This document shows, one piece after another, positions 895 through 55,507 of a DNA stretch of 64,000 nt. A program made the translations under genes and the position numbers. The notes beneath the pieces were generated by a model, which did not search any database, was not told the DNA's origin, and was given only the letters and a program-made list of their open reading frames with translations. Source of the DNA: Parasedimentitalea psychrophila (GTDB lineage Bacteria; Pseudomonadota; Alphaproteobacteria; Rhodobacterales; Rhodobacteraceae); NCBI RefSeq assembly GCF_030285785.1, contig NZ_CP127247.1, positions 4,053,501 to 4,117,500 on the forward strand, in the 5' to 3' direction. Position 1 is the stretch's first letter. Each line of letters starts with the position of its first letter.

Positions 895-902
895 GCCGAT
901 TC

Positions 903-38133: not shown

Positions 38134-38172
38134 TTTTCGCCCTTAGTATTCTGCCTCTCCGCCAGCTTTATA

Positions 38173-38237
38173 ACCAAGCGGTCACTTTTGATAAGCGTAC
38201 ATCGCAACATCCGTCAAGAAAAAAGTGACCGCTTGGT
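38173..38237. promoter_or_regulatory. paired 17-bp inverted operators of the TetR regulator
   Basis: ACCAAGCGGTCACTTTT (38173-38189) and its exact reverse complement AAAAGTGACCGCTTGGT (38221-38237) flank a 31-bp spacer between the divergent coxM-like and tetR genes. Each arm contains an AAGCGGTCACTT-type core like those of TetR-family sites. Spacing suggests two dimers or one repressor per promoter. Confidence 0.75.
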
Positions 38238-38285
38238 AATTTTCACCAAATCGGTTATCCTTGCCCAAACATTTGCGAGAGACCG

Positions 38286-38981: not shown

Positions 38982-39070
38982 AGTTCAATTGGCATTGGTG
39001 CGTAACTCAACCAGAACCCCGCCCTTCCCCCGGGCGCGATCATCGCTACAATCAGGCCTAGAGGCAACTC

Positions 39071-39349
39071 GGGTCACTCTCGATCTGATTGGACGTTAAC
39101 ATGTTTTGGGAGGGTAAACTCTTAGGCAAACGGGGGCGGCAGCAGGCCTACAGCGATGCTGCAATACAAGCCTGCCTGTCCATAAAAGTCCTCTTTGGTT
39201 TGCCTTTTCAGACGGCTGGGTTTGTGGAAAGCCTGCTGGATTTGGTTGGGCTGGACTGGGCCGTTCCTGACCTTCGCATTTTGTGTCGCCCACTGCCCGG
39301 AAACACATGTTTACACGTGTGAGAGGGACAGAAACCATTGCCCGTTATT
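39071..39349 (+). pseudogene. IS5-family transposase N-terminal fragment with nonsense codon and mini-insertion
   Basis: In one frame the sequence reads GSLSI, stop (TGA at 39086-39088), LDVNMFWEGKLLGKRGRQQ, AYSDAAIQACLSIKVLFGL, AGFVESLLDLVGLDWAVPDL. Family members have Trp (TGG) at the TGA position. The expected LCRRQKT segment is split after LCR by a 36-bp insertion (copy B of the mini-insertion family), after which CAGAAACCATTGCC continues. About 85 codons remain. Confidence 0.75.
39291..39327 (-). repeat. palindromic mini-insertion copy B
   Basis: Read on the minus strand: CCCTCTC, core ACACGTGTAAACATGTGT, then TTCCGGGCAGTG. It interrupts the IS5-type transposase between codons for LCR and RQK (about 36 bp; contains an in-frame stop). 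It is 33/37 identical to copy A. Confidence 0.85.
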
Positions 39350-39372
39350 ATTTCCTACCATGGCTCACCAGG

Positions 39373-39512
39373 GCCATTGAATCGGTTGGATGATCTGACT
39401 GTCGCGGAGCAAAATCCCGCCGTCTGACACCTGAGCGAAGGAGCTGAGGGTGGGGGGATGTATTCAGTGGAACTTTACAGCCGGCTACGGCCTGGGTGCC
39501 ATGTCGATGCGC
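39373..39512 (+). mobile_element. IS21-family left-end remnant 2
   Basis: About 140 bp parallel to the copies at 30670-30810 and 53135-53275, from CCATTGAATCGG through the first codons of istA (GTGGAACTTTACAGCCGG). It breaks off at about 39512. Confidence 0.65.
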
Positions 39513-39708
39513 TGTTCGGTATCAACACTTGAAAACTGAAAACCTATGGCTGCAAGCCAAGGAAAAGGGAGAACCCCATTAGTATCTTTCTGAATGGCGC
39601 CCGAAATCGAGCAGGCCTCTCTCTTGGGGAATGCCTCTGGTGCTGCTGCGGCCTCCCGCATACTGAAAGCATGGATGAGTCGAAAATGTATTGCCCGAGC
39701 CATTCGCC

Positions 39709-39747
39709 CATTGCCCGGCAGGCGATGCAAAGCATCGCTGAGAGGGG
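39709..39747 (-). repeat. palindromic mini-insertion copy D
   Basis: Minus strand: CCCCTCTC, core AGCGATGCTTTGCATCGCC (GCGATGC/GCATCGC stem), then TGCCGGGCAATG. It sits between codons for YNRTVR and EWLGQYIF of an IS3 orfB. Confidence 0.88.
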
Positions 39748-40054
39748 CGAACCGTGCGATTGTAGCGCTCAATATAGGCGTTCTGTTGCGGGTTTCCGGG
39801 CTGGATGTATTCGAGCCTAACACCTTGCTTCGCAGCCCATGCCATTGGGGTTCCGCTAACATATTCGGGCCCACTATCTACTCGGATTGTATTTGGCTTC
39901 CCCCGCCCTTCGATGATCTGGTTCAAACTGCGCACAACGCGCTCAGCTGGCAGTGAAAAATCTACTTCGATGCCCAAGCCTTCGCGATTGAAATCATCCA
40001 GGACGTTTAATGTCCGGATGGACCGGCCGTCAGCCAGTTGATCCGCCATGAAAT

Positions 40055-40095
40055 CCCCTAACGGCGTTTGCTACGCAAAAGCCTGTCGGGCAGTG
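40055..40095 (+). repeat. palindromic mini-insertion copy E
   Basis: Plus strand: CCCCTAAC, core GGCGTTTGCTACGCAAAAGC plus C (TTTGC/GCAAA and GGC/GCC pairing), then TGTCGGGCAGTG. It lies antisense to the IS3 orfB, between the codons for WS and DFMADQ, and appears to replace four bases (ATGG). Confidence 0.85.
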
Positions 40096-40135
40096 AACGA
40101 CCAAGTGTCATTCGGCATATTCACCGAGAGGTTCC

Positions 40136-40243
40136 TTACGCAGGCCCGATCAGTGAATGCGTGCATTCAGCTGCCGGTCCACCGCCCTCTGCCTGCTTCA
40201 AGATCGACATAATTTGTGCGTCGCTAAATCGTGCTGTCTTCAT
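40136..40243 (-). pseudogene. IS3-family orfA fragment
   Basis: The ATG at 40243 has a GAGGAG site. The product starts MKTARFSDAQIMSILKQAEG, then GGPAAE, the helix-turn-helix start of an IS3 orfA. It hits TAA after 35 codons. Most of orfA and the orfA/orfB junction are deleted before the orfB remnant begins. Confidence 0.7.
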
Positions 40244-40367
40244 CAAAAATCTCCTCAGATATCTTGCCGAGGAAATTCTACTTTTGAACACCGATAATCT
40301 TAGGGGGGATTACCCCGCCAGCGGCGCGCAATTGGGTATGTGGGTCGCGGGTGGCCAGCTGAAACGC

Positions 40368-40769
40368 TTACTTTTCACCCAGGAAAGCCGTCGCCTCAAC
40401 TTCGAGAAGCGCCTCGTCTTCTATCAAATCCAAGACGACAACCATTGACATTGCGGGGAAATTAGAGCCCAGCACCCGGCGGTAGGCCTGGCCAATTTCG
40501 CGTTGATGAGCCAGATATTCCTTTTTGTCTTTTACAAACCAGGTCAGACGCACGAGGTCTTCGGCGGTTCCGCCAGCGGCTTCAAGCACCGTCAGAATAT
40601 TCCGAAGCACCTGCTCCATCTGGCCGATAAAACTATGTTCGACAAACACCTGGTCTGCGGTCCAGCCCACTTGGCCACCGACATAAAGCGTACCATCGCC
40701 AGCCAAAACACCGTTCGCATATCCCTTGGCAGGCGCCCAACCTTCGGGGTGAATGATTGTATTGTTCAT
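40368..40769 (-). CDS. RidA-family protein
   Basis: The 133-residue protein has the RidA/YjgF fold: GVLAGDGTLYVGGQVGW near residue 19, QMEQVLRNILTVLEAAGG near 50 and the C-terminal ALLEVEATAFLG. The substrate-binding Arg of true RidA enamine deaminases is expected near residue 105, where YRRVLGSNFPAMSMVVV lies. Start at 40769. It ends the transporter block of the 2-aminobenzoate cluster, where an enamine or imine hydrolase would make sense after ring reduction. That link is inference. Confidence 0.82.
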   Translation of the reverse strand: MNNTIIHPEGWAPAKGYANGVLAGDGTLYVGGQVGWTADQVFVEHSFIGQMEQVLRNILTVLEAAGGTAEDLVRLTWFVKDKKEYLAHQREIGQAYRRVLGSNFPAMSMVVVLDLIEDEALLEVEATAFLGEK

Positions 40770-40824
40770 GTTCTTCTCTCCTGCAAATGTTGTTCTAGCT
40801 TGGCAGCAATCTGAAACTGATCTG

Positions 40825-41514
40825 CTAAACGCCCAGGTACCGATCGGTGATTTGCGGTGTAAGGTCACTAAATGCACCACTCCAGACAGAGCGGCCTTTT
40901 TCGAGGATTACCCCTGTGTCGGCCACCGTTCCCAGTTCCTTCAGAGATTTGTCGATAACCAGGATCGCCATATCTGTCTCATTTTTCAGCCGGGATATTA
41001 CGGCCCAAATTTCGGTTCTCACCACCGGAGCCAGACCTTCAGTCGCCTCGTCGAGGATCAGCAAACGCGGGTTGGTCATCAGCGCACGGCCGATTGCCAG
41101 CATTTGTTGCTCGCCGCCAGACAGCGAGGTCGACAGTTGATCACGGCGTTCCTCCAACCGGGGAAAGAGTTTGGCAATGGCCGAAAAATCCCATGCACCA
41201 GGCCGGGCCGAGGCAATCAGGTTTTCATAGACGGTCAGATTTGGGAAACAGCGGCGGCCTTCGGGGACAAGACCCAAGCCTAGGCGCGCCGCGCGGTGCG
41301 TTGGTACATTTGCCAGGTCTTGCCCGGCGAAAAACACGCTGCCGCCACGATTTGCCAGCATGCGGCAAATCACCTTAACAGTCGTCGATTTCCCCATGCC
41401 ATTTCGGCCCAGAACGGCAAGGACCTGCCCCTCGTCTATACTGAGATCAACATCAAAAAGAGCCTGAGATGACCCATAAAACGCAGACACATGCGACAGT
41501 TCCAATAGGCTCAT
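40825..41514 (-). CDS. livF: ABC transporter ATPase, LivF type
   Basis: The 229-residue ATPase has Walker A GRNGMGKST near residue 36, signature LSGGEQQMLAIGRALM near 133 and Walker B LLILDEATEGLAP. It is the second ATPase of a branched-chain-amino-acid-type (HAAT) importer. Start overlaps the livG stop by 4 bases. Such transporters next to aromatic-acid CoA ligases often import benzoate-like acids. Confidence 0.92.
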   Translation of the reverse strand: MSLLELSHVSAFYGSSQALFDVDLSIDEGQVLAVLGRNGMGKSTTVKVICRMLANRGGSVFFAGQDLANVPTHRAARLGLGLVPEGRRCFPNLTVYENLIASARPGAWDFSAIAKLFPRLEERRDQLSTSLSGGEQQMLAIGRALMTNPRLLILDEATEGLAPVVRTEIWAVISRLKNETDMAILVIDKSLKELGTVADTGVILEKGRSVWSGAFSDLTPQITDRYLGV

Positions 41515-42272
41515 GTCTCGTCGTCCTCCCCTAGATAGGCCGTTCGTACGATTGGATTGGAGCGGATTTCATCCACCGTGCCTGTCGCAACAATCTTGCC
41601 GTAAACCAATACGCTGATCCTGTCCGCCAGCGAAAACACCGCGTCCATATCGTGCTCAACCAATAGGATTGGTGCCTTGTGGCGCAACTGATCCAGAAAT
41701 CCGGTCAATCGAAGTGATCCTTCGGCTCCCAGACCGGCCATCGGTTCATCCATCAAAAACACCTTGGGTGACAACGTCAGGGCCACCGCAACCTCCAATT
41801 GGCGACGCTGACCATGCGACAGCTCGGATGTACGCGTCTTTGCAAAACCGTCCAGGCCAACCTGCGACAGCGCGTCATTTGCCACATCCAAAAGCGCCGT
41901 GTCTTTCATGGCCGGGCGGAAAAACCCCTTAAGCCCGATCTTGCCGCGGTGTCCCAAAGCCCCGAGCACCACGTTCTGCGACACCGTGTAATCCATTGCC
42001 AGGGACGAGACCTGGAAGGTGCGGCCCAGACCAAGCCGTGCCCGTTCGACCGTGGTTTTACCGGTGACATTCTCACCATCAAACCAGACCTCGCCGCTGT
42101 CAGCCTGCAAGCCACCCGCAATCTGTTTGATCAGCGTTGATTTACCGGCCCCGTTTGGACCAATTAGCGCATGGATTTCGCCCGGGACCAAGGTCAGCGA
42201 AATGTTGTCACTGGCCTTCAGCGCCCCGAAAGATTTTGAAATATTGCGGACATCGAGAATAGGATCAGTCAT
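41511..42272 (-). CDS. livG: ABC transporter ATPase, LivG type
   Basis: The 253-residue ATPase has Walker A GPNGAGKST near residue 36, signature LSHGQRRQLEVAVAL and Walker B VFLMDEPMAGLG. Starts at 42272, overlapping the livM stop by 8 bases. Forms the heterodimeric motor with LivF. Confidence 0.92.
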   Translation of the reverse strand: MTDPILDVRNISKSFGALKASDNISLTLVPGEIHALIGPNGAGKSTLIKQIAGGLQADSGEVWFDGENVTGKTTVERARLGLGRTFQVSSLAMDYTVSQNVVLGALGHRGKIGLKGFFRPAMKDTALLDVANDALSQVGLDGFAKTRTSELSHGQRRQLEVAVALTLSPKVFLMDEPMAGLGAEGSLRLTGFLDQLRHKAPILLVEHDMDAVFSLADRISVLVYGKIVATGTVDEIRSNPIVRTAYLGEDDET

Positions 42273-43248
42273 GGGCAACCTCCCGGCCGACAATCAATTC
42301 AATCAGGCCTCCACGCGCGAACAGAACCACGCCCAGCAGGATTGCCCCGAGATAGACATGCCAAAACTCGGATAATCCCCCCAACAGATACTCAAGCAGA
42401 ATAAACACAGCCGCGCCGACAACCGGCCCAAACAGGCGCCCGGTGCCTCCAAGGATAATGAAGATCATTATCTCGCCCGACATCTGCCAGCTGAACATTG
42501 TCGGACTGACAAACCGGTTCAGATCGGCAAACAATGCTCCCGATAGGCCGGTGATTGCGCCAGAAATCGTAAACGCGATCAAATAGAGCCTATAAGGAAC
42601 CATTCCAACGGCCTGCATCCGCTCTTCGTTCTGGCGCGCCCCCCCCAGTGCCAAACCAAAGGATGATTTTGCAATGCGCGACACCACGAACAGGACGATA
42701 CAAAGAAGCGCAAAGCAGATGCCAAAGAACTGGATTGGATCAAGTGTGTTCAGTCCGGGGAAGCCATTTCGAACATAGATAACAAGCCCATCCTCGCCGC
42801 CATATGCGGGCCAACTGATCATGAAAAAGAACAGCATTTGACCAAAGGCCAGGGTGATCATTATGAAATAGACCCCAGAGGTGCGCAGACTGAGCGCGCC
42901 GATAACCAGGGCAAACAGTGAACTGATCAAGACGGCAAACAGCCATATGAGCGGCATTGAATTGGTCCCGTCAATGACCAGCGGCCAGTCCATCAAAGAC
43001 GTGTAGCTTTGCGCATGGCTGGCCAGAATGCCCATTGAATAGCCGCCAATACCAAAAAAGGCGGCATGTCCTAAGCTAACAAGCCCACCAAGACCAAGGG
43101 CAAAATTCAGACCAACCCCCGCGATGGCAAAGATAACGGCCTTGGTCGCGAGGGTTATAATAAAGGGCTCGTCCACACGCAGCGCCCAAAGCGGGACGGC
43201 TAGCAGGCCAAGCAAAACACAGGCGTTTAGGATTGTTTCATTGCGCAT
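42265..43248 (-). CDS. livM: branched-chain-type ABC permease, LivM
   Basis: The 327-residue permease has about eight hydrophobic segments and LivM landmarks LNFALGLGGLVSLGHAAFFG and AFTISGAITGLSGALFADLN. The ATG at 43248 is used; the preceding frame is not conserved. It begins 1 base after the livH stop codon. Confidence 0.92.
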   Translation of the reverse strand: MRNETILNACVLLGLLAVPLWALRVDEPFIITLATKAVIFAIAGVGLNFALGLGGLVSLGHAAFFGIGGYSMGILASHAQSYTSLMDWPLVIDGTNSMPLIWLFAVLISSLFALVIGALSLRTSGVYFIMITLAFGQMLFFFMISWPAYGGEDGLVIYVRNGFPGLNTLDPIQFFGICFALLCIVLFVVSRIAKSSFGLALGGARQNEERMQAVGMVPYRLYLIAFTISGAITGLSGALFADLNRFVSPTMFSWQMSGEIMIFIILGGTGRLFGPVVGAAVFILLEYLLGGLSEFWHVYLGAILLGVVLFARGGLIELIVGREVAHD

Positions 43249-43249
43249 G

Positions 43250-44167
43250 TCACGAACTTCCAAACAGGCCAGTGGGCCTAAACAACAAAACACCGGCCAT
43301 CAGCACGTAAATGGACATCGACGCGAGGGATGACCCAACTGAAGCGGCGGCTGACGGCTCCATGATCAAACCAAATGCGGCGGGCAATAGAAACCCGGCC
43401 AGCGTATCGGTCAAGCCAACCAGCAATGCGCCCAACAGGGCTCCTTTGATGGAGCCAATTCCGCCAATAACGATGACGACAAACGCCAGGATCAAAACAG
43501 GCTCGCCCATTCCGACTTGAACCGATTGAATGGCGCCGATCAGCGCGCCGGCAAATCCCGCCAATGCCGCGCCAAGTGCAAAAACAAACGTGTATAGTTT
43601 CGATATATCAACACCCAAAGCTGCAATCATTTCCCGATCGCTTTCGCCGGCGCGAATTTGAATACCAATGCTGGTTCGGGCAATCAGTGCAAACAGCCCA
43701 GCCGCAACGAGCAGCCCAACCGCGATAATCGCCAGACGGTATTGCGGATATTGGATTCCGAAAGGCAAGCTAATGGGGCCGGACAGATACTCTGGAATTT
43801 CCAAAAACAGCGGGAATGATCCGAACAGCCACCTGGTGCCTTCGGAAAAGATCAGGATCAGCGCAAAGGTCGCCAGCACTTGATCCAGATGGTCCCGGTT
43901 ATATAGCCGCCGGATCACGGTCATTTCAACAATAGCCCCGGCCACGGCCGCAGCAACGAGGCTGGCGGCAAGAGCCAGCAGAAACGATCCGGTTGCAGCA
44001 GCGGTCGCAGCGGCTGCAAATGCGCCAATCATGTAAAAGGACCCATGTGCAAGATTGATCAGCCCCATCACCCCAAAGATCAAGGTCAGGCCGGCCGCCA
44101 TCAAAAACAACATCACTCCGAATTGCAGTCCATTTAGAATTTGCTCGATGAGCAATACTAGCGACAT
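43250..44167 (-). CDS. livH: branched-chain-type ABC permease, LivH
   Basis: The 305-residue permease starts MSLVLLIEQILNGLQFGVML, has GLINLAHGSFYMIGAF (permease hallmark) and the C-terminal ILAFVVIVIGGIGSIKGALL segment. The ATG at 44167 is preferred over the longer frame. It follows the binding-protein gene with 50 bp between. Confidence 0.92.
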   Translation of the reverse strand: MSLVLLIEQILNGLQFGVMLFLMAAGLTLIFGVMGLINLAHGSFYMIGAFAAAATAAATGSFLLALAASLVAAAVAGAIVEMTVIRRLYNRDHLDQVLATFALILIFSEGTRWLFGSFPLFLEIPEYLSGPISLPFGIQYPQYRLAIIAVGLLVAAGLFALIARTSIGIQIRAGESDREMIAALGVDISKLYTFVFALGAALAGFAGALIGAIQSVQVGMGEPVLILAFVVIVIGGIGSIKGALLGALLVGLTDTLAGFLLPAAFGLIMEPSAAASVGSSLASMSIYVLMAGVLLFRPTGLFGSS

Positions 44168-44217
44168 TCCCCGCCCCCCTTTTGGTGCCGGGCCGAATGA
44201 ACGGCCCGGCAGTCTCA

Positions 44218-45351
44218 CTACATTTTGCATTCAGCAACGTAAGCGTTCGAGTGATCTTCCAGCGCCGTAGACACAATTTTGTTTGTGTAAATGTCACCTT
44301 CCTTGATCACTTCACGCACGAAAACGTCCTGAATCGGGTGGTTGTTTTCCGCAAAGGAAAAATCCCCCCTTGTTGACGCAAATTCTGCCGCCTTCAGCGC
44401 AGCCTGGAAGGCGTCGGCGTCGGCAACGTCAGCAACGTCAACCGCGCTGATCAAAAGATTCGCGGTGTCGAAACCCTGAGACGCATAGAGCGATGGAAGA
44501 CGGCCGTATTCAGCCTGAAAGCTTGCCACAAAGGCTTCGTTTGTGGGGTTCGCGATGTCTTTTGACCACTGGCTGGTGTTTGCAACGCCAAGTGCTGCGT
44601 CACCAACAGCCTGAAGAATGCCTTGGTCAAAGCTGAAGGCTGGCCCGACCAAAGGAAGTTCAAGCCCACTGTCGGCGTATTGCTTAAGGAACGAAATGCC
44701 CATGCCGCCTGGCAGGAAGAAATACACGCTATCAGCGCCGGATGCCCGGATTTGAGCAATCTCAGATGCATAGTCTTTTTGGCCAAGTTTCGTGTACAGC
44801 TCACCTGAAAGCTCGCCCTCATAGACACGTTTGAAACCGGTCAATGCGTCTTTGCCAGCTGGGTAGTTTGGCGCCAGAACAAAGGTGTTGTTATACCCGG
44901 TGCTATTAGCATGGGCGCCGCCCGCTTCGTGCAGGTTGTCATTCTGCCAAGCAACGTTGAAATAGTTCTTGTGACACCCCTTCCCGGCCAGTTGTGATGG
45001 ACCTGCGTTTGGCGACAGGTAAAATTTACCCTGTGCCAAGGCGCTTGGCACAACTGCCATCGCAAGGTTTGACCAGATAATGCCGGTCAGAATATCAACT
45101 TTTTCCGACTGGATCATCCGGTCAGCCAGTTGAACGGCAATGTCAGGCTTGCGTTGATCGTCTTCGATCACCACCTCAATGTCATCGCGACTGGCTTGTT
45201 TAATGGCCAGCATAAAGCCGTCACGCACGTCAATTCCCAATCCGGCACCACCACCTGAAAGGGTGGTTATCATGCCGACTTTCACATCGGCCTGCGCCAG
45301 GCTGGCAGCGGATGTCAGCGCCGTTACCAGCGCGAGAAATTTAAGTTTCAT
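44218..45351 (-). CDS. branched-chain-type ABC substrate-binding protein
   Basis: The 377-residue periplasmic protein has a signal peptide (MKLKFLALVTALTSAASLAQA) and a type I binding fold (VGMITTLSGGGAGLGIDVRD, SPNAGPSQLAGKGCHKNYFN). Similar proteins beside benzoate or anthranilate CoA ligases bind aromatic acids. Ligand is inferred to be 2-aminobenzoate or a relative. First gene of the transporter block. Confidence 0.87.
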   Translation of the reverse strand: MKLKFLALVTALTSAASLAQADVKVGMITTLSGGGAGLGIDVRDGFMLAIKQASRDDIEVVIEDDQRKPDIAVQLADRMIQSEKVDILTGIIWSNLAMAVVPSALAQGKFYLSPNAGPSQLAGKGCHKNYFNVAWQNDNLHEAGGAHANSTGYNNTFVLAPNYPAGKDALTGFKRVYEGELSGELYTKLGQKDYASEIAQIRASGADSVYFFLPGGMGISFLKQYADSGLELPLVGPAFSFDQGILQAVGDAALGVANTSQWSKDIANPTNEAFVASFQAEYGRLPSLYASQGFDTANLLISAVDVADVADADAFQAALKAAEFASTRGDFSFAENNHPIQDVFVREVIKEGDIYTNKIVSTALEDHSNAYVAECKM

Positions 45352-45531
45352 GTGTTAGATCCTCCTGTGTTGTCCTCGACGGTTTTAAAAGCGCTTTAAA
45401 GGTCAGCGCCTTAACGGCCTACTTGATCCCGTCGAAACCAAGTAGTTTGCCACGTATGAAGTGCCCGATATCCGTGTGATCGTCGAGAAATAGTTTCCGC
45501 AACAGCTTTCTCTCAGCCCCCAACCCAATCG

Positions 45532-47154
45532 CTAGGCGTTTATTTCACGCAGCAAAAAACGTTGGATTTTGCCGGTTGGCGTTTTGGGCAGCGTTTCGCG
45601 AAACTTGATTGATCTGGGATATTTGTATGGCGCGATGGTTTCCTTGACATAATCCTGCAGCAGCTTGCGGGTTTCATCTGTTGGATTGGTTCCCGGCTTC
45701 AAAACGACATGCGCCTCAACCAGCATGCCGCGATCTTCGTCAGGAATGCCCACAACCGCACATTCCGACACTGCCGGATGCCCTAGAAGCGCAGACTCAA
45801 CCTCAGGTCCGGCAATATTGTAGCCAGACGAAATGATCATATCGTCATTTCTGGCCGCAAAATGCAGATAGCCATCTTCGTCCATGGTGAAACTGTCGCC
45901 GGTGATGTTCCAACCCTCGCAGACATAGTTGGATTGCCGGTCGTCATTCAAATACCGGCACCCGGTTGGCCCCCGAACAGCCAGACGCCCGGTCTCGCCC
46001 TGCGGCACGTCCTGCATATCGGAATCCACGATCCTTGCTTCATAGTTGCCCACGGTTTTCCCGGTGCAGCCCGGCCTGTGATCTTCAAACCGATTAGAGA
46101 CAAAGATATGCAGCAACTCAGTCGCGCCAATGCCGTCCAACATGGGCTTCCCCGTCTTCCTGATCCAGTCGTGATAGATTGGCGCAGGAAGGGTTTCCCC
46201 GGCTGAAACTGCCGCGCGCAGAGACGAGAGATCGGCGCCTTTTTCCATCGCTGCAAGCATGACCCGGTATGCCGTTGGCGCGGTAAAGCAAATCGTGGCT
46301 TTGTACTGCTGGATGATTTCAATCAATGACGGTGGTGACGCATTTTCCAGCAGTGTTGCAGCAGCCCCAAACCGCAGCGGGAAAATGGCCAGGCCACCAA
46401 GCCCAAAGGTAAACGAAAGCGGTGGGGAGCCGACGAAGACATCCGTCGGCTGAACATTCAGAACTTCCTTGGCATAGCCATCAGCAATGATGAGCAGATC
46501 GCGGTGAAAGTGCATTGTGGCCTTGGGTTTACCCGTTGTTCCCGACGTGAAGCCCAAAAGGGCAACGTCATCACGACCGGTTTTGGCAGGCTCGAATTGA
46601 ACAGGTTTCTCTAGCGCCAAGTGGTCCAGTTCGGCCGAATGGTTCATCGTGCCATCAAAGCCCAAAATATGCTTGAGATATTTGCTCGTTTTCTGACACT
46701 TAACCAGGTCATCCATCAGCCGCGTGTCGCACAGGGCGTGGGTGATTTCGGCCTTGTCGACAATCTGCCCAATTTCACCGGCGCGCAGCATCGACATAGT
46801 ATTGACGACAACTGCCCCAACTTTGGTTGCCGCCAACCAGCAAGCGACCATTGCCGGGTTATTGGCCGACCGAATGAGAACCCTGTTGCCCGGTTGCACC
46901 CCCATGTCGTCGACCAGGACATGCGCCAGTCGATTGCTCCAATCCGCCAACTCTTTGTATGTTCGCCGACGACCATTGCCAATCAGGGCGGTGTTGTCAC
47001 CGAACCCCTTGGCAACCATTGCATCGGTCAGTTCATAGCCAACGTTGAGGTACTCAGGGTAGTCAAACCCGTCGAGCAGAAAATCCGGCTGTTGTTCAAC
47101 CGGTGGCAACCCATCTCTTGAAAACCTGTCTACATGTCCGGTTGGTCCCAACAT
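45532..47154 (-). CDS. abmG: 2-aminobenzoate-CoA ligase-like enzyme
   Basis: This AMP-forming acid:CoA ligase activates the aromatic acid in the cytosol. The 540-residue protein has the P-loop-like LGFTSGTTGKPKATMHFHRD near residue 190, GIGATELLHIFVSNR near 320, and the C-terminal PKTPTGKIQRFLL with the adenylating Lys. Residues and length match the 2-aminobenzoate/benzoate-CoA ligase group. It starts one base after the acyl-CoA dehydrogenase stop codon and is the last catabolic gene of the operon. Substrate is inferred from the adjoining bifunctional monooxygenase/reductase. Confidence 0.82.
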   Translation of the reverse strand: MLGPTGHVDRFSRDGLPPVEQQPDFLLDGFDYPEYLNVGYELTDAMVAKGFGDNTALIGNGRRRTYKELADWSNRLAHVLVDDMGVQPGNRVLIRSANNPAMVACWLAATKVGAVVVNTMSMLRAGEIGQIVDKAEITHALCDTRLMDDLVKCQKTSKYLKHILGFDGTMNHSAELDHLALEKPVQFEPAKTGRDDVALLGFTSGTTGKPKATMHFHRDLLIIADGYAKEVLNVQPTDVFVGSPPLSFTFGLGGLAIFPLRFGAAATLLENASPPSLIEIIQQYKATICFTAPTAYRVMLAAMEKGADLSSLRAAVSAGETLPAPIYHDWIRKTGKPMLDGIGATELLHIFVSNRFEDHRPGCTGKTVGNYEARIVDSDMQDVPQGETGRLAVRGPTGCRYLNDDRQSNYVCEGWNITGDSFTMDEDGYLHFAARNDDMIISSGYNIAGPEVESALLGHPAVSECAVVGIPDEDRGMLVEAHVVLKPGTNPTDETRKLLQDYVKETIAPYKYPRSIKFRETLPKTPTGKIQRFLLREINA

Positions 47155-47155
47155 T

Positions 47156-48313: not shown

Positions 48314-49128
48314 CAGTTGCCCTCAAATTCTGGTTTTTCTTTTCCGACAAAGGCATGATAGGCGCGCTCAAAGTCCCTCGTCTGCATGCAGATCGCCTGG
48401 GCCTGGGCCTCGGATTCAATCGCTTGCTCTAGCCCCATGTTCCATTCCTGATTGAGCTGGGTCTTGGTGATACCATGGGCGAATGTAGGTCCCGCAGCCA
48501 ATCGAGACGCCATCTTGATCGCGGCGGTCTCCAGATCATCAGCGCCGTGAATGGCGTTCCAGAAACCGGAGATATGACCTTCCTCGGCCCCAAATGAGCG
48601 ACCGGTGTAAAGCAGTTCAGCGGCCCGGCCCTGACCAATAATGCGCGGCAACATCGCACAGGCCCCCATATCGCAGCCCGCCAGCCCGACACGGGTAAAC
48701 AAGAACGCACATTTGGCCTCTGGCGTGGCCAGTCTCAGGTCTGCAGCCATTGCGACAATGGCACCGGCACCGACACAAATACCATCCACGGCCGCAATGA
48801 TCGGCTTGCCACAGGTAATCATCGCCTTGACCAAATCACCGGTCATCCTAGTGAAGGCCAGTAGCTCTTTCATATCCATTTTGACAAGCGGGCCGATAAT
48901 CTCGTGCACATCGCCGCCCGAACAGAAATTGCCGCCGTTAGAGCCAAATACCACCACGTCTACATCTTCAGCATAAACCATTGCCCGAAACGTATCGCGA
49001 AGTTCGGCATAGCTTTCAAATGTCAGCGGGTTCTTGCGATCGGGCCGGTTCAGGCGGATCACCGCAATCTGATCCTTTACCTGCATTTCAAAATGCTTGG
49101 GTTCAAATTCAGTCATCCGAGTCATCAT
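48313..49128 (-). CDS. enoyl-CoA hydratase/isomerase family protein
   Basis: The roughly 271-residue crotonase-fold protein has [20 protein letters not shown] near residue 25, the oxyanion-hole segments [15 protein letters not shown] and [20 protein letters not shown], and [20 protein letters not shown]. Start is ambiguous: four tandem ATG codons follow AAAGGAG, and I take the third (49128). It overlaps the marR gene end by about 20 bases, so translation is tightly coupled. Confidence 0.87.
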
Positions 49129-49570
49129 CATCATCTCCTTTGGCCTGCTTCAGCATGTCACGTAGGGTATCCAGGTCGTCGTGGTCGAAACCCGAAAACA
49201 ATTTGTCGACTTCGGCTTCATGCGCGGCGGCTAGTATTTCAAACTGGGCGCGGCCCTGATCCGTCAATTGCACCTCGATGACACGCCGGTCGGTTTTTAC
49301 AGGTGTTCGCGTCACCCATCCGTCCTGCTCAAGTCGGCCAATGATTGCGGTAGCATTTCCGTTGGAAACCAACAACATACGACTAAGGTCGCTCATCTTT
49401 ATCGGGGTTTGATTTCGGTGCAATGCTGCCATCACATCAAATCGGGGCAATGTCGTATTGTATTCCACTCGTAGAAATTCGCGCAGATGGCTTTCTGATC
49501 TGCGGGTGAGGCGTAGTAATCTGATCCAGGTGCGCAACCGCCGCCGCGATAGTGAGATTGTATCGCTCAT
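49109..49570 (-). CDS. MarR-family regulator
   Basis: The 153-residue protein has the MarR winged helix: [20 protein letters not shown], then [20 protein letters not shown] and the wing [16 protein letters not shown]. It ends in an Asp-rich tail (DDDDDSDD). It is embedded inside the catabolic operon, overlapping both neighbours, and resembles regulators of aromatic-CoA pathways that respond to CoA thioesters. Operator not identified. Confidence 0.86.
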
Positions 49571-50307
49571 ATCTCACCTCCGGCAATGGAAATGGCCTGA
49601 CCATTGATACCCTCGGATCCTTTGCCGCACAGCCAGAGGGCGGCGTTTGAGACCTCATGCGGCTGCACCAGCCTTTTTTGCGGGTTGTGTGACGCCAGTG
49701 CCGCAATTGCATCAGGGCGGGCTTTGCCGGTTTTTTCGACAATGTTCTGGATCGTTCTTTCGGTCATTTCCGTTTCCAGAAATCCGGGGCACAGCGCATT
49801 GACCGTGATGTCCCGTTTGGCGGTTTCCATGGCCAGTGAGCGGGTCAATCCGACAACACCATGTTTGGCTGCCGCATAGGGGGCCACATATGCATATCCC
49901 TTGAGCCCCGCCGTAGAGGCCACCGATATCAGCCGTCCCCAGCCCTGCATCTGGTTTAGCCCTTCACGCAGCGTCAAAAACACCCCGGTCAGATTGATCG
50001 CCAACATCGCGTTCCAGTCCGCCAGCGATGTCCGCCCAAACGGCGCACTGGTCGAGGCACCGGCATTGGCAATGACAATGTCCACCGGGCCCGCCGCTGC
50101 AAACAGCGCCTGCACATCGTCTTCGCTGGTGACATCAGCCCGTATGGCGCGGGTATTTGCTGTTTCACTGGCCACAGCGTCAAGCCTGTCCTGCCTGCGT
50201 CCAGAGATCACCACCTCAGCGCCGACAGCCGCAAAATGGGCGGCCATGTCGGCGCCAAGCCCGGTCCCTCCGCCGGTAATCAGCACCCGTTTGCCAGTAA
50301 GTGTCAT
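49567..50307 (-). CDS. SDR-family oxidoreductase in the 2-aminobenzoate operon
   Basis: The 246-residue protein has [13 protein letters not shown] near the N-terminus, NAGAS, the active site Ser then Y-A-A-A-K ([14 protein letters not shown]), and CPGFLETEM. Longer frame upstream is not conserved. The ATG at 50307 overlaps the stop of the upstream gene by 4 bases. Likely a 3-hydroxyacyl-CoA or ring-hydroxy dehydrogenase in the pathway. Confidence 0.87.
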
Positions 50308-52595
50308 ACCCGGATTGCCTCCTGCGCCTTTTCTTGCAGGCGATAGGCCTGATCGCGCCCGGGAAGGTAAGGATCCGGCCAGCTGACGGCGCCATCGCCA
50401 AGCGAGGTCCCGGCATGCAAGGTCCAATAGGGATCGGCGAGATGCGGCCGCCCCAGACAAACAAGATCGGCCCGTCCCGCGATCAGAATTGAGTTCACGT
50501 GATCGGTTTCAAAGATATTGCCCACCGCCATCGTCGGCATGCCCAACTCGTTGCGAATACGGTTCGAAAACGGAGTCTGAAACATCCGGCCATAGACCGG
50601 ACGGCCCTCAGAACTGGTCTGACCCGCAGAGACATCGATGATGTCTGCACCAGCCGCACGGAACAGCCTAGCAATCTCTACCGCATCCTCTGGTGTCACA
50701 CCATTTTCTTCAACCCAATCATTGGCCGAGATCCGAACAGAGAGCGGTTTATCAGCAGGCCAAGCCGCCCGCATGGCGGTCAGAACCTCCACCGGATAGC
50801 GCATGCGGTTTTGCAGACTGCCGCCAAATTCATCAGACCGGCTATTAGACAAAGGCGAGATGAACGAGGAAATCAGATAGCCGTGCGCCGCATGCAATTC
50901 CACCATGTCAAACCCAGCCAGGTCCGCCATTTGGGTCGCGGCGACAAATTGATCCCGCACCGCATCCATTTCCGCACGGTTGATTTCCCGAGGTGTGGCG
51001 TTGCCATCAGACCAGGGGATTGGCGAGGCCGAAACAAGATCCCAGTTGCCCTCATCGAGAGGCGCATCCATTTCCTGCCAGCCTACCTGAGTCGAGCCTT
51101 TGCGTCCCGAATGGCCAATCTGGCAGCAGGTTTTGGCAGCGGTTTCGGAATGGACAAAAGCATTCAAACGCGACCATGCGGCCTGATGCTCTGGCGCATA
51201 TAACCCGGGGCAGCCGGGGGTGATGCGCCCCTCGGGACTGACACAGGTCATTTCGGTATAGACCAAAGCAGCGCCGCCTTTGGCGCGCTCACTATAGTGA
51301 ACGAAATGCCAATCGGTGGGGCATCCATCCACCGCCTTATACTGCGCCATAGGTGACACCACGATACGGTTGGCCAGCTCCATATTTCCCAGTTTAAACG
51401 GCGCGAACATCGGCGCCCTGACCGGCGCATCCGCAGGTACACCTGCCTTGGTCTGGAACCAGCGCTCTGCCTTTTCAACCCAGGCTGGATCACGCAAACG
51501 CAGGTTTTCATGGCTGATACGTTGGGATCGGGTCAAGAGGTTGTAATTGAACTGGACGGGGTCCTGATCCAGATAGCGTTCCACCTCTTCAAACCATTCC
51601 AGAGAGTTGCGCGCGGCGGATTGCAACCGCAAGACCTCTAACCGCCGCTCCTCCTGATAGCGCTGAAACGCCTGTTCAAGCGTTGGTTCTGAGTGCACGT
51701 AGTTGGCTAGGGCAATGGCGCTATCGAAAGCAAGACGGGACCCAGATCCGATTGAGAAATGTCCGGTCGCCGCCGCATCGCCCATCAGCACAACGTTTTC
51801 ATTGTACCATTTTTCGCAAATGACCCTTGGGAAATTCATCCAGACAGCCGATCCACGCAAATGGTTGGCATTGCATATCAGATCGTTGCCATCGAGGTAT
51901 TTCGCAAAAACCGCCTGACAGGCCGCCACGGTTTCTTCTTTGGACATAACGGCAAAGCCAAATCCATCCCAGGTTGGCTGCAGGCATTCCACAATGAAGG
52001 TCGCTGTATTGTCATCGAACTGATAGACATGCGCCCACATCCAGCCAAACTCGGTTTTCTCGAAAATAAATGTAAAGGCGTCAAATTTCTGATGGGTGCC
52101 GAGCCAGATGAACTTGCACAGGCGGGTGTCGATATCGGGCTTGTAAACATCTTCGTATTCTTTGCGCACCAATGAGTTGATGCCGTCAGTCGCTACGACA
52201 ATATCATAGTCCTTGCGGTACTCTTCGGCGCTTTTGAAGATCGTCTCAAACTGCATATTTACCCCCAGTTCACGGGCCCGCGCCTGCAGGATGATAAGCA
52301 ATTTCTTGCGGCCGATCCCGGCAAATCCATGCCCCCCCGAAACCGTCCGATCGCCATTGTGCTCAACCGCGATATCATCCCAATAGGCAAAGCTATTGCG
52401 GATCTCTGCCGTGCTCTTGGGGTCATTTTCCTGCATTTGATCAAGGGCATCATCTGAAAGAACCACCCCCCATCCAAAGGTGTCATTGGCTTTGTTTCGC
52501 TCAAGAACCGTAACTTCGGTGCTTGGATCGCGCAACTTCATGCTGATCGCAAAATACAAACCTGCGGGCCCGCCGCCGAGACACATTACCTTCAT
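50304..52595 (-). CDS. abmA: bifunctional aryl-CoA monooxygenase / OYE-type reductase (2-aminobenzoyl-CoA or salicylyl-CoA type)
   Basis: This 763-residue fusion is the key enzyme. Residues 1 to about 385 are an FAD-dependent aromatic hydroxylase: [20 protein letters not shown] at the start and [20 protein letters not shown] near residue 275. Residues 400 to 745 are an old-yellow-enzyme FMN domain: [40 protein letters not shown]. The same architecture is known for 2-aminobenzoyl-CoA monooxygenase/reductase, which hydroxylates and dearomatises the ring, and for salicylyl-CoA 5-hydroxylases. The nearby CoA ligase favours the former. First gene of the operon. Confidence 0.88.
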
Positions 52596-52667
52596 GACAT
52601 AGCCTTTTGTTTATATGATTCTTGGCGCTTCACTTTCGATCGTAGCGGCAGAGATTCATTATTTCAA

Positions 52668-52690
52668 GCTTGAAGCTTTAAGCTTCAAGC
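52668..52690. repeat. 23-bp perfect palindrome
   Basis: GCTTGAAGCTT (52668-52678) and AAGCTTCAAGC (52680-52690) form a perfect 11-bp inverted repeat around one base, about 75 bp upstream of abmA. It could be an operator for the operon (on the minus strand) or a remnant of mobile DNA. Confidence 0.6.
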
Positions 52691-52740
52691 AATGCCCGCC
52701 CCACCAGTCTTGAGCGACGTCACTGGCACCACAAAACGCT

Positions 52741-52921
52741 TTGCGGTTGCCTCGAAAGCCTTGTTCCAAGGAAAACAATGATACATATTTGAATAGAAGA
52801 ACTAATGGAGAGCGTGATGACGTTACCCAGAAGAAAATTTCTTGCGGGCGGCGCTGCACTGATCGCTGGCGCCGCACTGGGCCTGGGTGCTGTCAAACCA
52901 ATTCGAACTCGTCTCAGTTAA
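52741..52921 (+). pseudogene. truncated duplicate of the promoter and signal peptide of the Sox-associated MBL gene
   Basis: 52741-52890 parallels 16885-17030: the upstream block CTCGAAAGCCTTG, the ATATTTGAAT operator-like word at 52785-52794, the GGAG ribosome site and the ATG at 52817. The product reads MTLPRRKFLAGGAALIAGAA, then LGLG, then diverges and stops after 34 codons at 52921. All the catalytic domain is missing. Confidence 0.85.
52785..52794 (+). promoter_or_regulatory. duplicated candidate SoxR operator (ATATTTGAAT)
   Basis: This is the counterpart of the 16924 site, carried along with the pseudogene. It matches the soxV/soxS site exactly. Confidence 0.4.
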
Positions 52922-52938
52922 TCGCTAAAACCAGGAAC

Positions 52939-53052
52939 CTATGCTGAACAAAGTTGACGCCACTCGGAGAGAGCGGCGGTGCGGTTGAGCTTGAAATTTT
53001 CGCGTGAATAAAGGTGACGTTCCTGATTGTAGTGATTGCAAACCGAGGCGTG
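52939..53052 (-). pseudogene. C-terminal fragment of a DDE transposase (possibly IS6 family)
   Basis: On the minus strand the frame ends CNHYNQERHLYSRENFKLNR, TAALSEWRQLCSA, then TAG at 52939. The ERHLxxR...RxAALxEWxxL ending resembles transposase C-termini I associate with IS6-like elements. Only about 38 codons remain; family assignment is tentative. Confidence 0.45.
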
Positions 53053-53053
53053 G

Positions 53054-53497
53054 AGGTGGTCGCGGGAATTCGGACCAGTAGTTAAAGAGGTGGTCGCAGG
53101 ATTTCGGCCCAGTAACTAAGGGTGTGAACCCCGGAGACAAAATGTCCATTGAATCGGTTGGATGATCTGACCGTCGCGGAGTAAAATCCGGCAGTCTGAC
53201 ACCCGAGGCGAACGAGCTGAGGGTGGGGATATTCAGTGGAACTTTACAGCCGGGTACGACGTGCGTGCCATGTCGACGGGATGAGCAATGGCGCGGCGGC
53301 GCGTCTAATTGGGATTGATCGCAAGACCGTTGCGAAGATCCTGAAGCATTCAGTTCCGCCGGGATACCGCCGGGAAGGTCCACCAGCCCGCCCGAATCTT
53401 GATCCGTTCGTGGCGATTATCAGTCAGATCCTCGCGGAGGATATGAGCCGGATCAAGAAACGACGTCATACCGCCAAGTGTATCCATGAGCGCCTGT
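53054..53497 (+). mobile_element. IS21-family left-end remnant 3
   Basis: The longest of three copies. It begins with a 34-bp tandem repeat (53054-53087 and 53088-53121, 28 of 34 identical), as IS21 ends often carry repeated short motifs. A non-coding leader and the 5' part of istA follow. The element stops at about 53497. Confidence 0.7.
53236..53497 (+). pseudogene. IstA transposase N-terminal fragment
   Basis: The GTG-started frame reads MELYSRVRRACHVDGMSNGA, ARLIGIDRKTVAKILKHS and ends in KKRRHTAKCIHERL, the N-terminal helix-turn-helix and following linker of IstA. The rest of istA and istB are absent; unrelated sequence follows. Confidence 0.75.
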
Positions 53498-53584
53498 GTT
53501 GTTGGACACTTATTATTGCAGTAACAGGAAGAGCCCGGAGGACGCCGGAAGAAGGCGGATAGAACCTTACAAACAAGGGGTTTT

Positions 53585-53903
53585 GTGACGGCGGGCAGTA
53601 TCCTGGGCAGGTTTGAGGGCTGGCTGTACCTCGCAGTGATCCTCGACCTGCATTCCCGGCGCGTCATCGGGTGGGCCGTCAGCAATCGGATGAAGCGTGA
53701 TCTGGCGATCCGGGCTTTGAACATGGCCATAGCCTTCCGATCACCACCTGCGGGCTGCATTCATCATACGGACAGGGGCAGCCAATACTGTTCCCACGAT
53801 TACCAGAAGATCCTGCGCCAACATGGGTTCAGGGCATCCCCTCTCCCACATGTAAACATGTGCTGCCGGGCAGTGCATGAGCGGCAAAGGTAATTGCTAT
53901 GAT
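53585..53903 (+). pseudogene. IS3-family orfB transposase, 5' part, split by a mini-insertion and by IS110
   Basis: From about 53613 the frame reads [67 protein letters not shown], the IS3 DDE core with the second Asp in HTDRGSQY. After RAS a 37-bp insertion (copy A) intervenes; then MSGKGNCYD continues (53877-53903) and is cut by the IS110 element. The 3' part resumes at 55225. Confidence 0.88.
53838..53875 (+). repeat. palindromic mini-insertion copy A
   Basis: CCCCTCTC (53838-53845), core CCACATGTAAACATGTGC (CACATG/CATGTG palindrome), then TGCCGGGCAGTG to 53875. It splits IS3 orfB between the codons for RAS and MSGKGN. Removing 53840-53876 restores the frame exactly. Confidence 0.92.
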
Positions 53904-53919
53904 TGTGAGTATGCTATTG

Positions 53920-54085
53920 CGGCTTGATGGTCTGACCCATGCTACGATTGGCTCCGTGTCATTGCGTTGACGTGTCGACCATCAAGTCGCCCTGGCAACC
54001 GGCGAGATGTGACTTCATAGGAGCCTGTCGGGGACGCCCCTTCACAGTCTTGTCCTCTCTGAACGGATGCCTGGGCATCGTCAAT
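53920..54085 (+). ncRNA. candidate bridge-RNA region in the IS110 left end
   Basis: Upstream of the IS110 transposase, four successive hairpins can be drawn: CTTGATGGTC/GACCATCAAG (53923-53932 with 53977-53986, large 44-base loop), TCGCC/GGCGA (53987-53991 with 54001-54005), GGGG/CCCC (54030-54033 with 54037-54040) and GATGC/GCATC (54066-54070 with 54075-54079). IS110-type elements encode their target- and donor-recognising bridge RNA here. Guide loops were not assigned. Confidence 0.45.
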
Positions 54086-54096
54086 GAGGGGATCAA

Positions 54097-55208
54097 ATGT
54101 CCATTATTGAAACAAGCCTTAGGGCCACCGATATTATCATTGGTGTCGATACACACAAGTCCATCCATGTCGCCGTGGCGATCAATGAACAGGGTACTCG
54201 CCTCGCTGCTATCTCTGTTCCCACCAATTCCAAAGGGTACATGGAATTAGATAACTGGTCCCGGTCACTGGGTTCGGTTCAGGCATTTGGGATCGAAGGA
54301 ACCGGGCCTTACGGTGCTGGTCTTTCCCGTTATCTGATGTCTCTGGGCCTGAATATTGTTGCGGTAACACGACCCAACTATTACCCGACAGTGGTTTGCC
54401 CTTGCAAATCATGAGAGGGCGACAATTGCGTTATCAGCAAGGAAAGAATGACAGTCTTGACGCTGAGGGCGCTGCCCGGTCTGTTCTCAGCGGGCAGGCA
54501 ATTGCTGCACCCAAAACCCAATTCGGTTCTGTGGAGATGATCCGCCACTTGAAGATCGCCCGTGATACAGCCGTAAAAAGTCGTTCTGTGGCGTTGGTTA
54601 CACTCAAAGCACTGATTATAAATGCGCCTGCCGAACTGCGCGATAGCCTTGATCAGTTAAAAGGCAAAATTGCGCTGATCCGACATATTGCGGCGTTCAG
54701 ACCAGGGCCGATCACATCTACAACCGCGTCAGCCAAAGCTGCCATGCGCTCGTTGGCACGCCGATGGTTGATGTTGAATGACGAAGTCGCAGAACACGAC
54801 AAGGAACTCAAAACCTTGGTAGAAGCAAAGGCACCCAGCTTGATGGCCTCTCACGGGATCGCAACACTTACAATCGCGGAAATGCTGATATTGGTTGGCG
54901 ACAATCCAAGCCGCATTCGATCCGAAGCAGCGCTGGCAAAATTGTGTGGTGTTTGTCAGTTCCCAGTTTCGAGCGGGAAAACACACAGGTTCAGGCTCAA
55001 TCGTGGTGGAAAGCGACAAGCCAACGCAGCTCTATATCGGGTCGCAATTGTCAGGATGAGAAACCATGAACCAACACTCGCATATGTTAGAGAGCGCACC
55101 AAAGACGGTAAAAGCAAAAGTGAGATCATTCGCTGTCTCAAACGCTATATCGTCCGCGAAATCTTCACACATCTTTGCAGGCCAGAAACACAGGAAAAGC
55201 CATGTTGA
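54097..55208 (+). pseudogene. IS110-family transposase, frameshifted by a 41-bp mini-insertion
   Basis: The N-terminal part (from the ATG at 54097) has the RuvC-like DEDD domain: IIGVDTHKSIHVAVAI, AFGIEGTGPYGAGLSRYL. After ...VAVTRPN the 41-bp copy F intervenes; the frame then continues RQLRYQQGKNDSLDAEGAAR with the remaining acidic residues. The C-terminal Tnp_20 domain contains HGIATLTIAEMLILVGD and CQFPVSSGKTHRFRLNRGGK with the catalytic Ser region. Without the insertion the gene would be one intact frame of about 355 codons. Confidence 0.88.
54384..54420 (-). repeat. palindromic mini-insertion copy F
   Basis: Minus strand: GCCCTCTC, core containing TTTGC AAGG GCAAA, then TGTCGGG followed by TAATA rather than CAGTG. 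The whole 41-bp segment 54379-54419 splits the IS110 transposase between the codons for RPN and RQL, a clean break. Confidence 0.82.
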
Positions 55209-55224
55209 CAAACATAGGAGCTTC

Positions 55225-55473
55225 AATGCCGCTGTGGAGACGTTCTTCAAAACCATCAAGGCCGAGCTTATCTGGCGTAGTTCATGGGAAACACGGCGGC
55301 AGGCTGAGATGGCGATCTTCGAATACATAAACGGGTTCTACAACCCACGCCCCTCTCGGGATATTGCTTCGCAATACCCTGCCGGGCAGTGGGCGGCACT
55401 CAGCATTGAGTTGGAAAAGCCCCGTCGCCTTCGAATGAAAAGTAGATTAAACGAGCACCTGAGGCGGCACTAA
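55225..55473 (+). pseudogene. IS3-family orfB transposase, 3' part, frameshifted by a mini-insertion
   Basis: Continuing from 53903, the frame reads [42 protein letters not shown], including the third catalytic residue (E of VETFF). Copy C of the mini-insertion (55350-55393) follows. Beyond it the expected [14 protein letters not shown] is present in a shifted frame. Confidence 0.88.
55350..55391 (+). repeat. palindromic mini-insertion copy C
   Basis: CCCCTCTC (55350-55357), core GGGATATTGC TTC GCAATACCC-type palindrome (55358-55379), then TGCCGGGCAGTG (55380-55391) and GG. It splits the IS3 orfB C-terminus after FYNPR; the 43-bp length shifts the frame. Confidence 0.92.
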
Positions 55474-55507
55474 AGCGGGACAGGTCCAAACAGCCAGAGG
55501 TCTGCGT

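What the first reader, a model, noticed from the sequence alone, without database searches (positions are those of the whole stretch)
39291..55393. Family of six tiny palindromic insertions, all inside transposase genes
Six segments share constant arms, CCCCTCTC on the left and TG[C/T]CGGGCAGTG on the right, around an 18-22 nt variable palindrome: A 53838-53875, B 39291-39327 (minus), C 55350-55391, D 39709-39747 (minus), E 40055-40095, F 54384-54420 (minus, right arm partial). The arms are conserved while the stem sequences differ, the reverse of REP elements. Each interrupts recognisable transposase coding sequence (two IS3 subtypes, IS5, IS110). Deleting A (37 bp) or F (41 bp) restores the codons cleanly. 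None was seen in the roughly 60 kb of other sequence. Explanations: a miniature mobile element that prefers or tolerates IS DNA; a host process that silences transposases; or translationally bypassed hairpins comparable to mitochondrial byp elements.
Basis: seen in the sequence. Interest (0 to 1): 0.92.

Follow-up and report, generated by a model that had tools for sequence, protein, structure and literature searches.

The report
Tiny hairpin parasites of transposons
This marine bacterium and many relatives carry a family of about 40-base mobile DNA hairpins with constant ends and changeable stems that insert precisely, mostly inside the genes of other jumping elements, so they look like parasites of parasites whose moving enzyme is not yet known.

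Summary
The six segments are real; a recount finds exactly these six in the window and 144 copies in the fetched parts of its genome, against 0-1 in shuffles. 57 of 198 genomes of the family hold exact matches, none the reversed pattern. Arms are constant (CCCTCTC, TGCCGGGCARYG); stems vary but keep pairing (91.4% against 63.9% for swapped halves). Filled and empty copies show insertion without target duplication at C|GAYG; removal restores register at 43 of 65 testable sites. In relatives 88 of 124 elements lie within 250 bp of transposase sequence against 94 of 2148 random points, but some lie between genes. Filled ISs are multicopy. Best reading: non-autonomous REP-like hairpins riding on insertion sequences; single-strand (HUH-like) insertion is inferred. 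The enzyme is unidentified: no Y1 transposase or reverse transcriptase match in this genome. Translational bypass is not supported: both orientations occur, in-frame lengths are not favoured, and an IS3 lineage lacking part of its integrase core is also multicopy. Eight searches of an open-licence library found no description.

The parts
53839..53875 (+). Element A, 37 nt, stem CCACATGTAAACATGTGC, in an IS3 transposase gene, same direction
   Evidence: empty homologues and delta 0
39291..39327 (-). Element B, 37 nt, one arm mismatch, directly beside a DDE_Tnp_1_5-type (IS5-like) fragment that runs on the opposite strand
55351..55391 (+). Element C, 41 nt, bulged-A stem, at the end of an IS3 transposase fragment; the empty homologue has one nt more than the joined flanks
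39709..39746 (-). Element D, 38 nt, beside an IS3 fragment, same direction
40056..40095 (+). Element E, 40 nt, diverged left arm; flanks read as an IS3 remnant on the opposite strand
   Evidence: site resembles L134_4216, whose empty form is in L085; assignment by reading
54379..54419 (-). Element F, 41 nt, diverged right arm, inside an IS110 transposase gene, opposite direction
   Evidence: place in the gene read from sequence
40145..40183 (+). Possible degenerate seventh copy (5 arm mismatches) near E
   Evidence: weak, shuffled windows give 50-62 matches at this stringency
54097..55208 (+). IS110 transposase split by F into ORFs 54097-54414 and 54396-55208
   Evidence: IS110 profile match to 54255-55205
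53525..53839 (+). IS3 transposase fragment ending at A
55060..55350 (+). IS3 transposase fragment ending at C
39747..40070 (-). IS3 fragment beside D; its frame overlaps the first bases of E
39089..39289 (+). DDE_Tnp_1_5-type (IS5-like) fragment beside B

Best explanation
A family of non-autonomous mobile hairpin elements of about 34-47 nt. SHOWN: constant arms (CCCTCTC left, TGCCGGGCARYG right) flank a stem that changes sequence but keeps pairing, usually with a bulged A in 22 and 24-nt stems; insertion is without target duplication at C|GAYG, mostly with no loss, sometimes one nt lost at the left end; the family is spread over Rhodobacteraceae and lies in or near transposase fragments of 12 seed groups (about 11 IS families; labels mine from Pfam matches); whole ISs that carry elements occur in up to 8 copies. 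INFERRED: the elements persist mainly by riding on ISs (hyperparasites), which are copied in trans by related or former intact transposases and homogenised by recombination. Read on the complementary strand, the element lies 3' of a CRTC tetranucleotide, starts with the right arm and then carries the bulged hairpin; this resembles REP and IS200/IS605 ends, so single-strand insertion by an HUH-type enzyme acting in trans is the likeliest mechanism. The enzyme is not identified.
For: Copies and controls. Insertion: filled/empty pairs; 43 of 60 pairings viewed have 0 nt difference; 43 of 65 non-self sites have delta 0. Target logo over 202 sites: -1 C 72%, +1 G 78%, +2 A 64%, +3 T 57% or C 28%, +4 G 65%. 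Pairing: 1129 of 1235 inner pairs Watson-Crick, 91.4% against 63.9% for swapped halves; 26 of 32 pair positions have two or more pair types; A at position 4 in 59 of 65 distinct 22-nt and 20 of 23 distinct 24-nt stems. IS bias: 144 of 213 sites; 88 of 124 against 94 of 2148. Spread within ISs: all 8 IS5 copies and all 5 IS110 copies (one split) carry elements; IS30 has 6 filled copies (one partial) and 3 empty. Trans mobilisation: an IS3 lineage with the element where 78-91 aa are missing against longer homologues is multicopy.
Against: No Y1_Tnp match in the own genome, only a borderline association of Y1 with elements in relatives (9 of 18 against 48 of 180, p 0.054), and of 20 Y1 loci scanned only L240 has good arms, L248 one doubtful match. 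Three near-identical intact Y2_Tnp (IS91-type) genes exist, but the ends of their shared segment do not carry the arms. The lean of mismatches to one strand is not significant (38 against 27, p 0.21). REPs in print are mainly extragenic. The occasional loss of one base at the left end is not predicted by simple HUH cleavage. The IS bias may be stronger than riding explains. Of 30 ORFs beside sites that the first profile run had left without a match, put to Pfam, 21 had no match.
Confidence: 0.5

Rival explanations
1. Targeted insertion: the unknown enzyme or a host process prefers IS DNA, for example as a silencing defence or by acting on transposition intermediates.
For: 71% of elements against 4.4% of random points lie near transposase sequence; five candidates lie within 0.7 kb of one IS and five within 0.85 kb of another; 44 of 108 own elements of that set have a neighbour within 300 bp.
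Against: Filled ISs multiplied, so silencing would be ineffective; intergenic copies exist; the target is only about 5 nt; riding plus counter-selection in host genes also gives enrichment.
Confidence: 0.25
2. Translational bypass: ribosomes or RNA processing skip the hairpins so that the transposases stay functional.
For: IS5 and IS110 have no element-free near-identical copy in this genome; removal restores register at 43 of 65 sites; in a doubly filled IS5 copy an open frame runs through both inserts.
Against: Both orientations: 34 same and 21 opposite, including both in one IS5 gene; removal is off by 1-2 nt at 12 of 65 sites and by more at 10; only 36 of 232 distinct elements have a length divisible by three; an IS3 lineage without part of its integrase core is multicopy too; element-free open IS30 copies exist.
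Confidence: 0.05
3. A structure-recognising recombinase (integron-like) or retrotransposition inserts the hairpin.
For: No target duplication; structure kept while sequence varies; different stems at the same site in near-identical IS110 copies could be exchange; the left end is less exact than the right in several pairs.
Against: No RVT_1 match in the own genome (the control search rings in 3 of 14). The arms do not resemble attC core sites as I recall them. Integrases were not searched for.
Confidence: 0.15
4. Ordinary repeats or chance palindromes inherited with the ISs.
For: Many filled IS copies are near identical and share the element by descent.
Against: 213 distinct sites, empty sites, reversed-pattern control 0 in 198 genomes, 144 copies against 0-1 in shuffles.
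Confidence: 0.01

Closest known systems
GTAG and CGTC REPs (Di Nocera 2013, PMC3733652; outline and passages seen)
   Same: Small palindromic repeats with varying stems and one unpaired conserved end; CGTC REPs are mainly alphaproteobacterial, lack a dedicated transposase, and the tag varies (TGTC, CCTC); here the 5' flank on one strand is CRTC.
   Different: Here CRTC is target sequence present in empty sites, a constant 12-nt arm separates it from the stem, the other end is GAGAGGG and not CCA, and most elements lie near transposase sequence; that paper reports only a few fortuitous associations of CGTC repeats with transposase genes.
REP/TnpAREP and IS200/IS605 ends (PMC8266576; passages seen)
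   Same: A hairpin, bulged in some systems, beside a tetranucleotide; ssDNA cleavage and recombination; bulge and tetranucleotide matter for the E. coli enzyme.
   Different: No Y1 match in this genome and no GTAG; arms constant and stems free.
Rickettsia palindromic elements (passages of PMC3733652, rest recalled)
   Same: Palindromes inserted within genes.
   Different: Hosts there are protein genes of many kinds; here mainly IS genes, and lengths divisible by three are not favoured.
Mitochondrial byp elements (recalled; search listing only)
   Same: Short hairpins inside coding sequence.
   Different: Both orientations here and no sign of restored expression.
Integron attC sites (recalled)
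   Same: Variable hairpin between conserved ends.
   Different: Different core motifs as recalled; integrase not searched for.

Membership tests
REP/RAYT (GTAG) | GTAG next to the hairpin | tested here: not met
   Logo shows C|GAYG (CRTC on the other strand)
REP/RAYT (GTAG) | RAYT (Y1_Tnp) gene in the genome | tested here: not met
   PF01797: 0 matches in own genome; control rings in 5 of 14
REP/RAYT (GTAG) | Palindrome of 20-50 nt at high copy | tested here: met
   144 copies of about 34-47 nt; size range from PMC8266576 passage
CGTC REP | CGTC-type tag directly at an 8-9 bp stem, and a CCA tail | tested here: not met
   CRTC is target and 12 nt from the stem; tail GAGAGGG; definition from passages of PMC3733652
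CGTC REP | Mainly extragenic | tested here: not met
   88 of 124 within 250 bp of transposase sequence
IS200/IS605-type HUH element | Insertion without target duplication 3' of a short target | tested here: met
   (one nt sometimes lost)
IS200/IS605-type HUH element | Covalent tyrosine intermediate, ssDNA substrate | not testable with these tools
   needs biochemistry
IS91 MITE | Ends shared with the Y2_Tnp elements of the genome | tested here: not met
byp-like bypass element | Fixed orientation to the reading frame | tested here: not met
   34 same and 21 opposite; that byp elements have a fixed orientation is recalled
byp-like bypass element | Interrupted gene still yields full-length protein | not testable with these tools
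   needs proteomics
MITE with terminal inverted repeats | Terminal inverted repeats and target duplication | tested here: not met
   arms are not complementary (by reading); no duplication
Integron attC | Linked integrase | not tested
   no integrase family was searched
Rfam family | Match above gathering score | tested here: not met
   0 matches in window 38000-57000

The most novel reading that the evidence does not exclude
A class of transposon-hunting hairpins: a mobile element of about 40 nt whose insertion machinery, not RAYT and not reverse transcriptase, directs it into insertion-sequence DNA of many unrelated families, with recognition by arms and by the shape of the stem, and exchange of stems at occupied sites.
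Probability: 0.2. Interest if true: 0.88.

Novelty: new variant of a known kind. Interest (0 to 1): 0.64.

Why it matters
These would be among the smallest mobile elements known, living mainly inside other mobile elements and spread over a large marine bacterial family. They interrupt transposase genes of about eleven IS families, so they may shape IS activity and IS annotation. Near-identical filled and empty ISs in one genome give a natural assay for finding the enzyme, and the constant-arm, free-stem design makes structure recognition directly testable.

Tried and rejected
Rejected or indecisive: translational bypass as the general explanation (see rivals). Y1/RAYT in the same genome. REPtron layout: of 20 Y1 loci scanned, L240 (G089) has elements on both sides of a Y1 gene (one of them with two mismatches), L248 has one doubtful match, 18 have none; one search lists further Y1 places that were not scanned. 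IS91-type Y2 elements as source: ends do not match. Reverse transcriptase. Rfam. Search for a recurrent non-transposase gene near elements: the recurrent clusters were IS genes, an ABC transporter, a dehydrogenase, four frames without Pfam match (at least one lies opposite a transposase) and one not scanned. The ORF-span test of excision was too noisy. The codon-position test was indecisive; copies are mosaics. The first transposase profiles were contaminated by element-encoded residues and were redone with elements masked. The wobble-strand test is not significant.

Limits of the counts: the fuzzy search behind the site statistics missed many copies. A plain recount finds 144 copies of at most 2 mismatches with a stem, 38 of them not in the set, F and E among the missed. 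The logo, orientation, frame and IS-bias numbers rest on the incomplete set of 297 members (own and fetched), which also contains a few matches with poor stems. Pfam or NCBIfam on ORFs beside sites without a match in the first profile run: 7 of 30 transposase, 1 dehydrogenase, 1 weak amidase, 21 none; NCBIfam 1 of 10 (IS3).

Failed calls: BLAST parameter error; script time-out.
Full report
OBSERVATION. The six segments of the finding are in the sequence. A plain recount with at most two arm mismatches and a stable stem finds exactly these six in the window and none in 10 shuffled windows; in all fetched regions of the window's genome (356 kb) it finds 144 copies (73 exact, 48 with one and 23 with two mismatches) against 1, 0, 0, 0, 0 in five shuffles. 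Over the whole genome (5.0 Mb, 4 contigs) a strict pattern has 34 hits against 0 for the reversed pattern and a relaxed one 99 against 2; all of these lie on contig C1. The earlier fuzzy search that feeds most statistics below gave 123 candidates, 108 with at most two mismatches, at 64 distinct sites; it missed 38 copies of the recount, E and F included, so those statistics rest on a part of the family.

ANATOMY. Element = CCCTCTC, a stem-loop of mostly 18-24 nt, TGCCGGGCARYG. In 157 distinct stems of the 18, 20, 22 and 24-nt classes, 1129 of 1235 inner pairs are Watson-Crick (91.4%), against 63.9% when halves of different elements of one class are combined; 26 of 32 pair positions show at least two Watson-Crick types with two or more sequences each. 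59 of 65 distinct 22-nt stems and 20 of 23 distinct 24-nt stems have an A at position 4 that the pairing leaves out; on the other strand this is a bulged T on the 3' side of the stem. I recall such a bulged T in IS608 hairpins; no call shows it. Mismatches lean towards pairs that would be G.T on the complementary strand (38 against 27), not significantly (p 0.21). Folding four complementary strands as DNA gives a small second hairpin in the right arm in three of four, with weak z-scores (-1.1 to -1.9).

INSERTION. Filled and empty copies define the ends. In IS30 of this genome there are six filled copies (one partial) and three element-free copies with stop-free frames of 387, 377 and 387 aa. 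Empty TATGTC|GAGCG against filled TATGTC|element|GGCG: net +37 for a 38-nt element. In IS5, four of eight copies have a second element where the other four are empty; one such pair has 100% identical 120-nt flanks; net +40 for 41 nt. Across own and fetched loci 192 pairings at 72 sites were found; I viewed the best 60, of which 43 show 0 nt difference and 17 show -1 to +4. Of 107 sites with homology on both sides to a long open frame (260 aa or more), 42 matched only their own frame running through the element and were dropped. At the other 65, exact removal gives the reference's register at 43, an offset of 1-2 nt at 12, and larger differences (-29 to 285 nt) at 10. Some reference frames carry an element elsewhere, so they are not all untouched genes. 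I saw no target duplication in the pairs viewed. The logo over 202 distinct sites is C|G-A-Y-G-G.

WHERE. With elements masked, profiles grown from Pfam-identified seeds put 144 of 213 distinct sites within 250 bp of transposase sequence of 12 seed groups, IS3 most often (64); 69 sites had none. In the fetched relatives 88 of 124 elements qualify against 94 of 2148 random points at least 1.5 kb from elements. A separate Pfam tally agrees: rve 21 and rve_3 18 of 103 ORFs beside elements against rve 2 of 79 control ORFs (only the 25 commonest families are shown). ORFs beside sites that had no match in the first profile run mostly had no Pfam match (21 of 30). By eye I read some of the unassigned sites as IS3 or IS21 pieces; others are at contig ends or have poor stems, and some are intergenic: elements in L219 and L220 lie between convergent open frames, one in L116 lies 48 bp after a dehydrogenase ORF. 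So the family is IS-biased, not IS-restricted. Orientation to the gene is mixed: 85 same, 59 opposite by best hit; 34 and 21 among the 55 sites with offsets of at most 2 nt.

DISTRIBUTION. 57 of 198 genomes drawn from the same family have an exact match, own included; the reversed control is 0 in the rows shown. A scan of viral contigs gave 6 stretches, one without a stem.

LIFE INSIDE ISs. The IS5-like element (884 bp) has 8 copies at 95-100%, all filled, four doubly; the next relatives are 64% identical. The IS110 has 4 full copies and 1 split copy, all with two elements; the longest next relative is 69% identical. At one IS110 site three copies share one stem and two another, with flanks about 99% identical where compared; this could be re-insertion, exchange or gene conversion. 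Single and double IS5 copies do not separate cleanly by their other differences, so recombination between copies is likely. An IS3 lineage has an element where 89 aa of the transposase are missing against one homologue (78 or 91 against others); it exists as three full copies plus fragments, and no copy without the gap was found. So absence of an intact copy does not show that filled transposases work. In the doubly filled IS5 copy that I translated, an open frame runs through both inserts, with a misread stretch between them; this may be coincidence.

MECHANISM. Shown: clean insertion, target, structure kept by paired changes, spread with ISs. Inferred: on the complementary strand the element follows CRTC, begins with the right arm and carries the bulged hairpin; this is the layout of REP and IS200/IS605 substrates, where a tetranucleotide and, for the E. 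coli enzyme, a bulge are needed (passages of PMC8266576). But the own genome has no Y1_Tnp match. 18 of 198 genomes have one; 9 of these 18 hold elements against 48 of the other 180 (my count; p 0.054). Three near-identical Y2_Tnp (IS91-type) genes of 401 codons are present; the ends of the 2576-bp segment they share do not carry the arms. No RVT_1 match was found. Integrases were not searched. The enzyme is unknown, lost, or of a kind not tested.

BYPASS. Against it: mixed orientation, no excess of lengths divisible by three (36 of 232 distinct elements), the gapped IS3 lineage, and element-free IS30 copies that could act in trans. Not excluded for single cases.

LITERATURE. Eight searches of an open-licence library found no description of this family. 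I saw the outline and passages of PMC3733652 and passages of PMC8266576, and search listings only for the rest. CGTC REPs of alphaproteobacteria are the nearest described kind; tag position, tail and location differ.

VERDICT. A real and widespread family of minimal hairpin elements, not found described in those searches, best filed as a new variant of REP-like small palindromic mobile DNA, with an unusual preference for insertion sequences and an unidentified mobiliser.

Noticed in passing
window 40145-40183: Possible seventh, degenerate copy with a GAATGC/GCATTC stem and five arm mismatches, close to E.
   Followed up: partly
window 1-927 (-): An IS30-type transposase frame at the start of the window (profile E 1.4e-89).
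   Followed up: no
L043 1625-2548 (G000:C1 445324-446247): In this doubly filled IS5 copy an open frame runs through both inserts (+38 and +40 net), with a misread stretch of about 14 aa between them.
   Followed up: partly
L068 2048-2088 and L071 2094-2134: Near-identical IS110 copies carry different hairpin stems at the same site, as if stems were exchanged or re-inserted.
   Followed up: partly
L042 1996-2688 and L080 8986-9245: A DDE_Tnp_1_5-type IS carries five elements within 700 bp; a second copy, 98% identical over 1021 bp, carries several of them.
   Followed up: no
L044 1712-2690: IS3 lineage with an element at a gap of about 89 aa in the transposase, present in several copies.
   Followed up: yes
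L219 1533, L220 1520: GGGCCTGC-type elements between convergent open frames, possibly serving as terminators.
   Followed up: partly
L240 902 and 2013: A Y1 transposase gene lies between two elements in inverted orientation (the second with two mismatches), beside an IS110 fragment; this layout was not seen at 19 other Y1 loci scanned.
   Followed up: partly
L259, L260, L261: Three near-identical IS91-type Y2_Tnp elements; 2576 bp are identical between the first two.
   Followed up: partly
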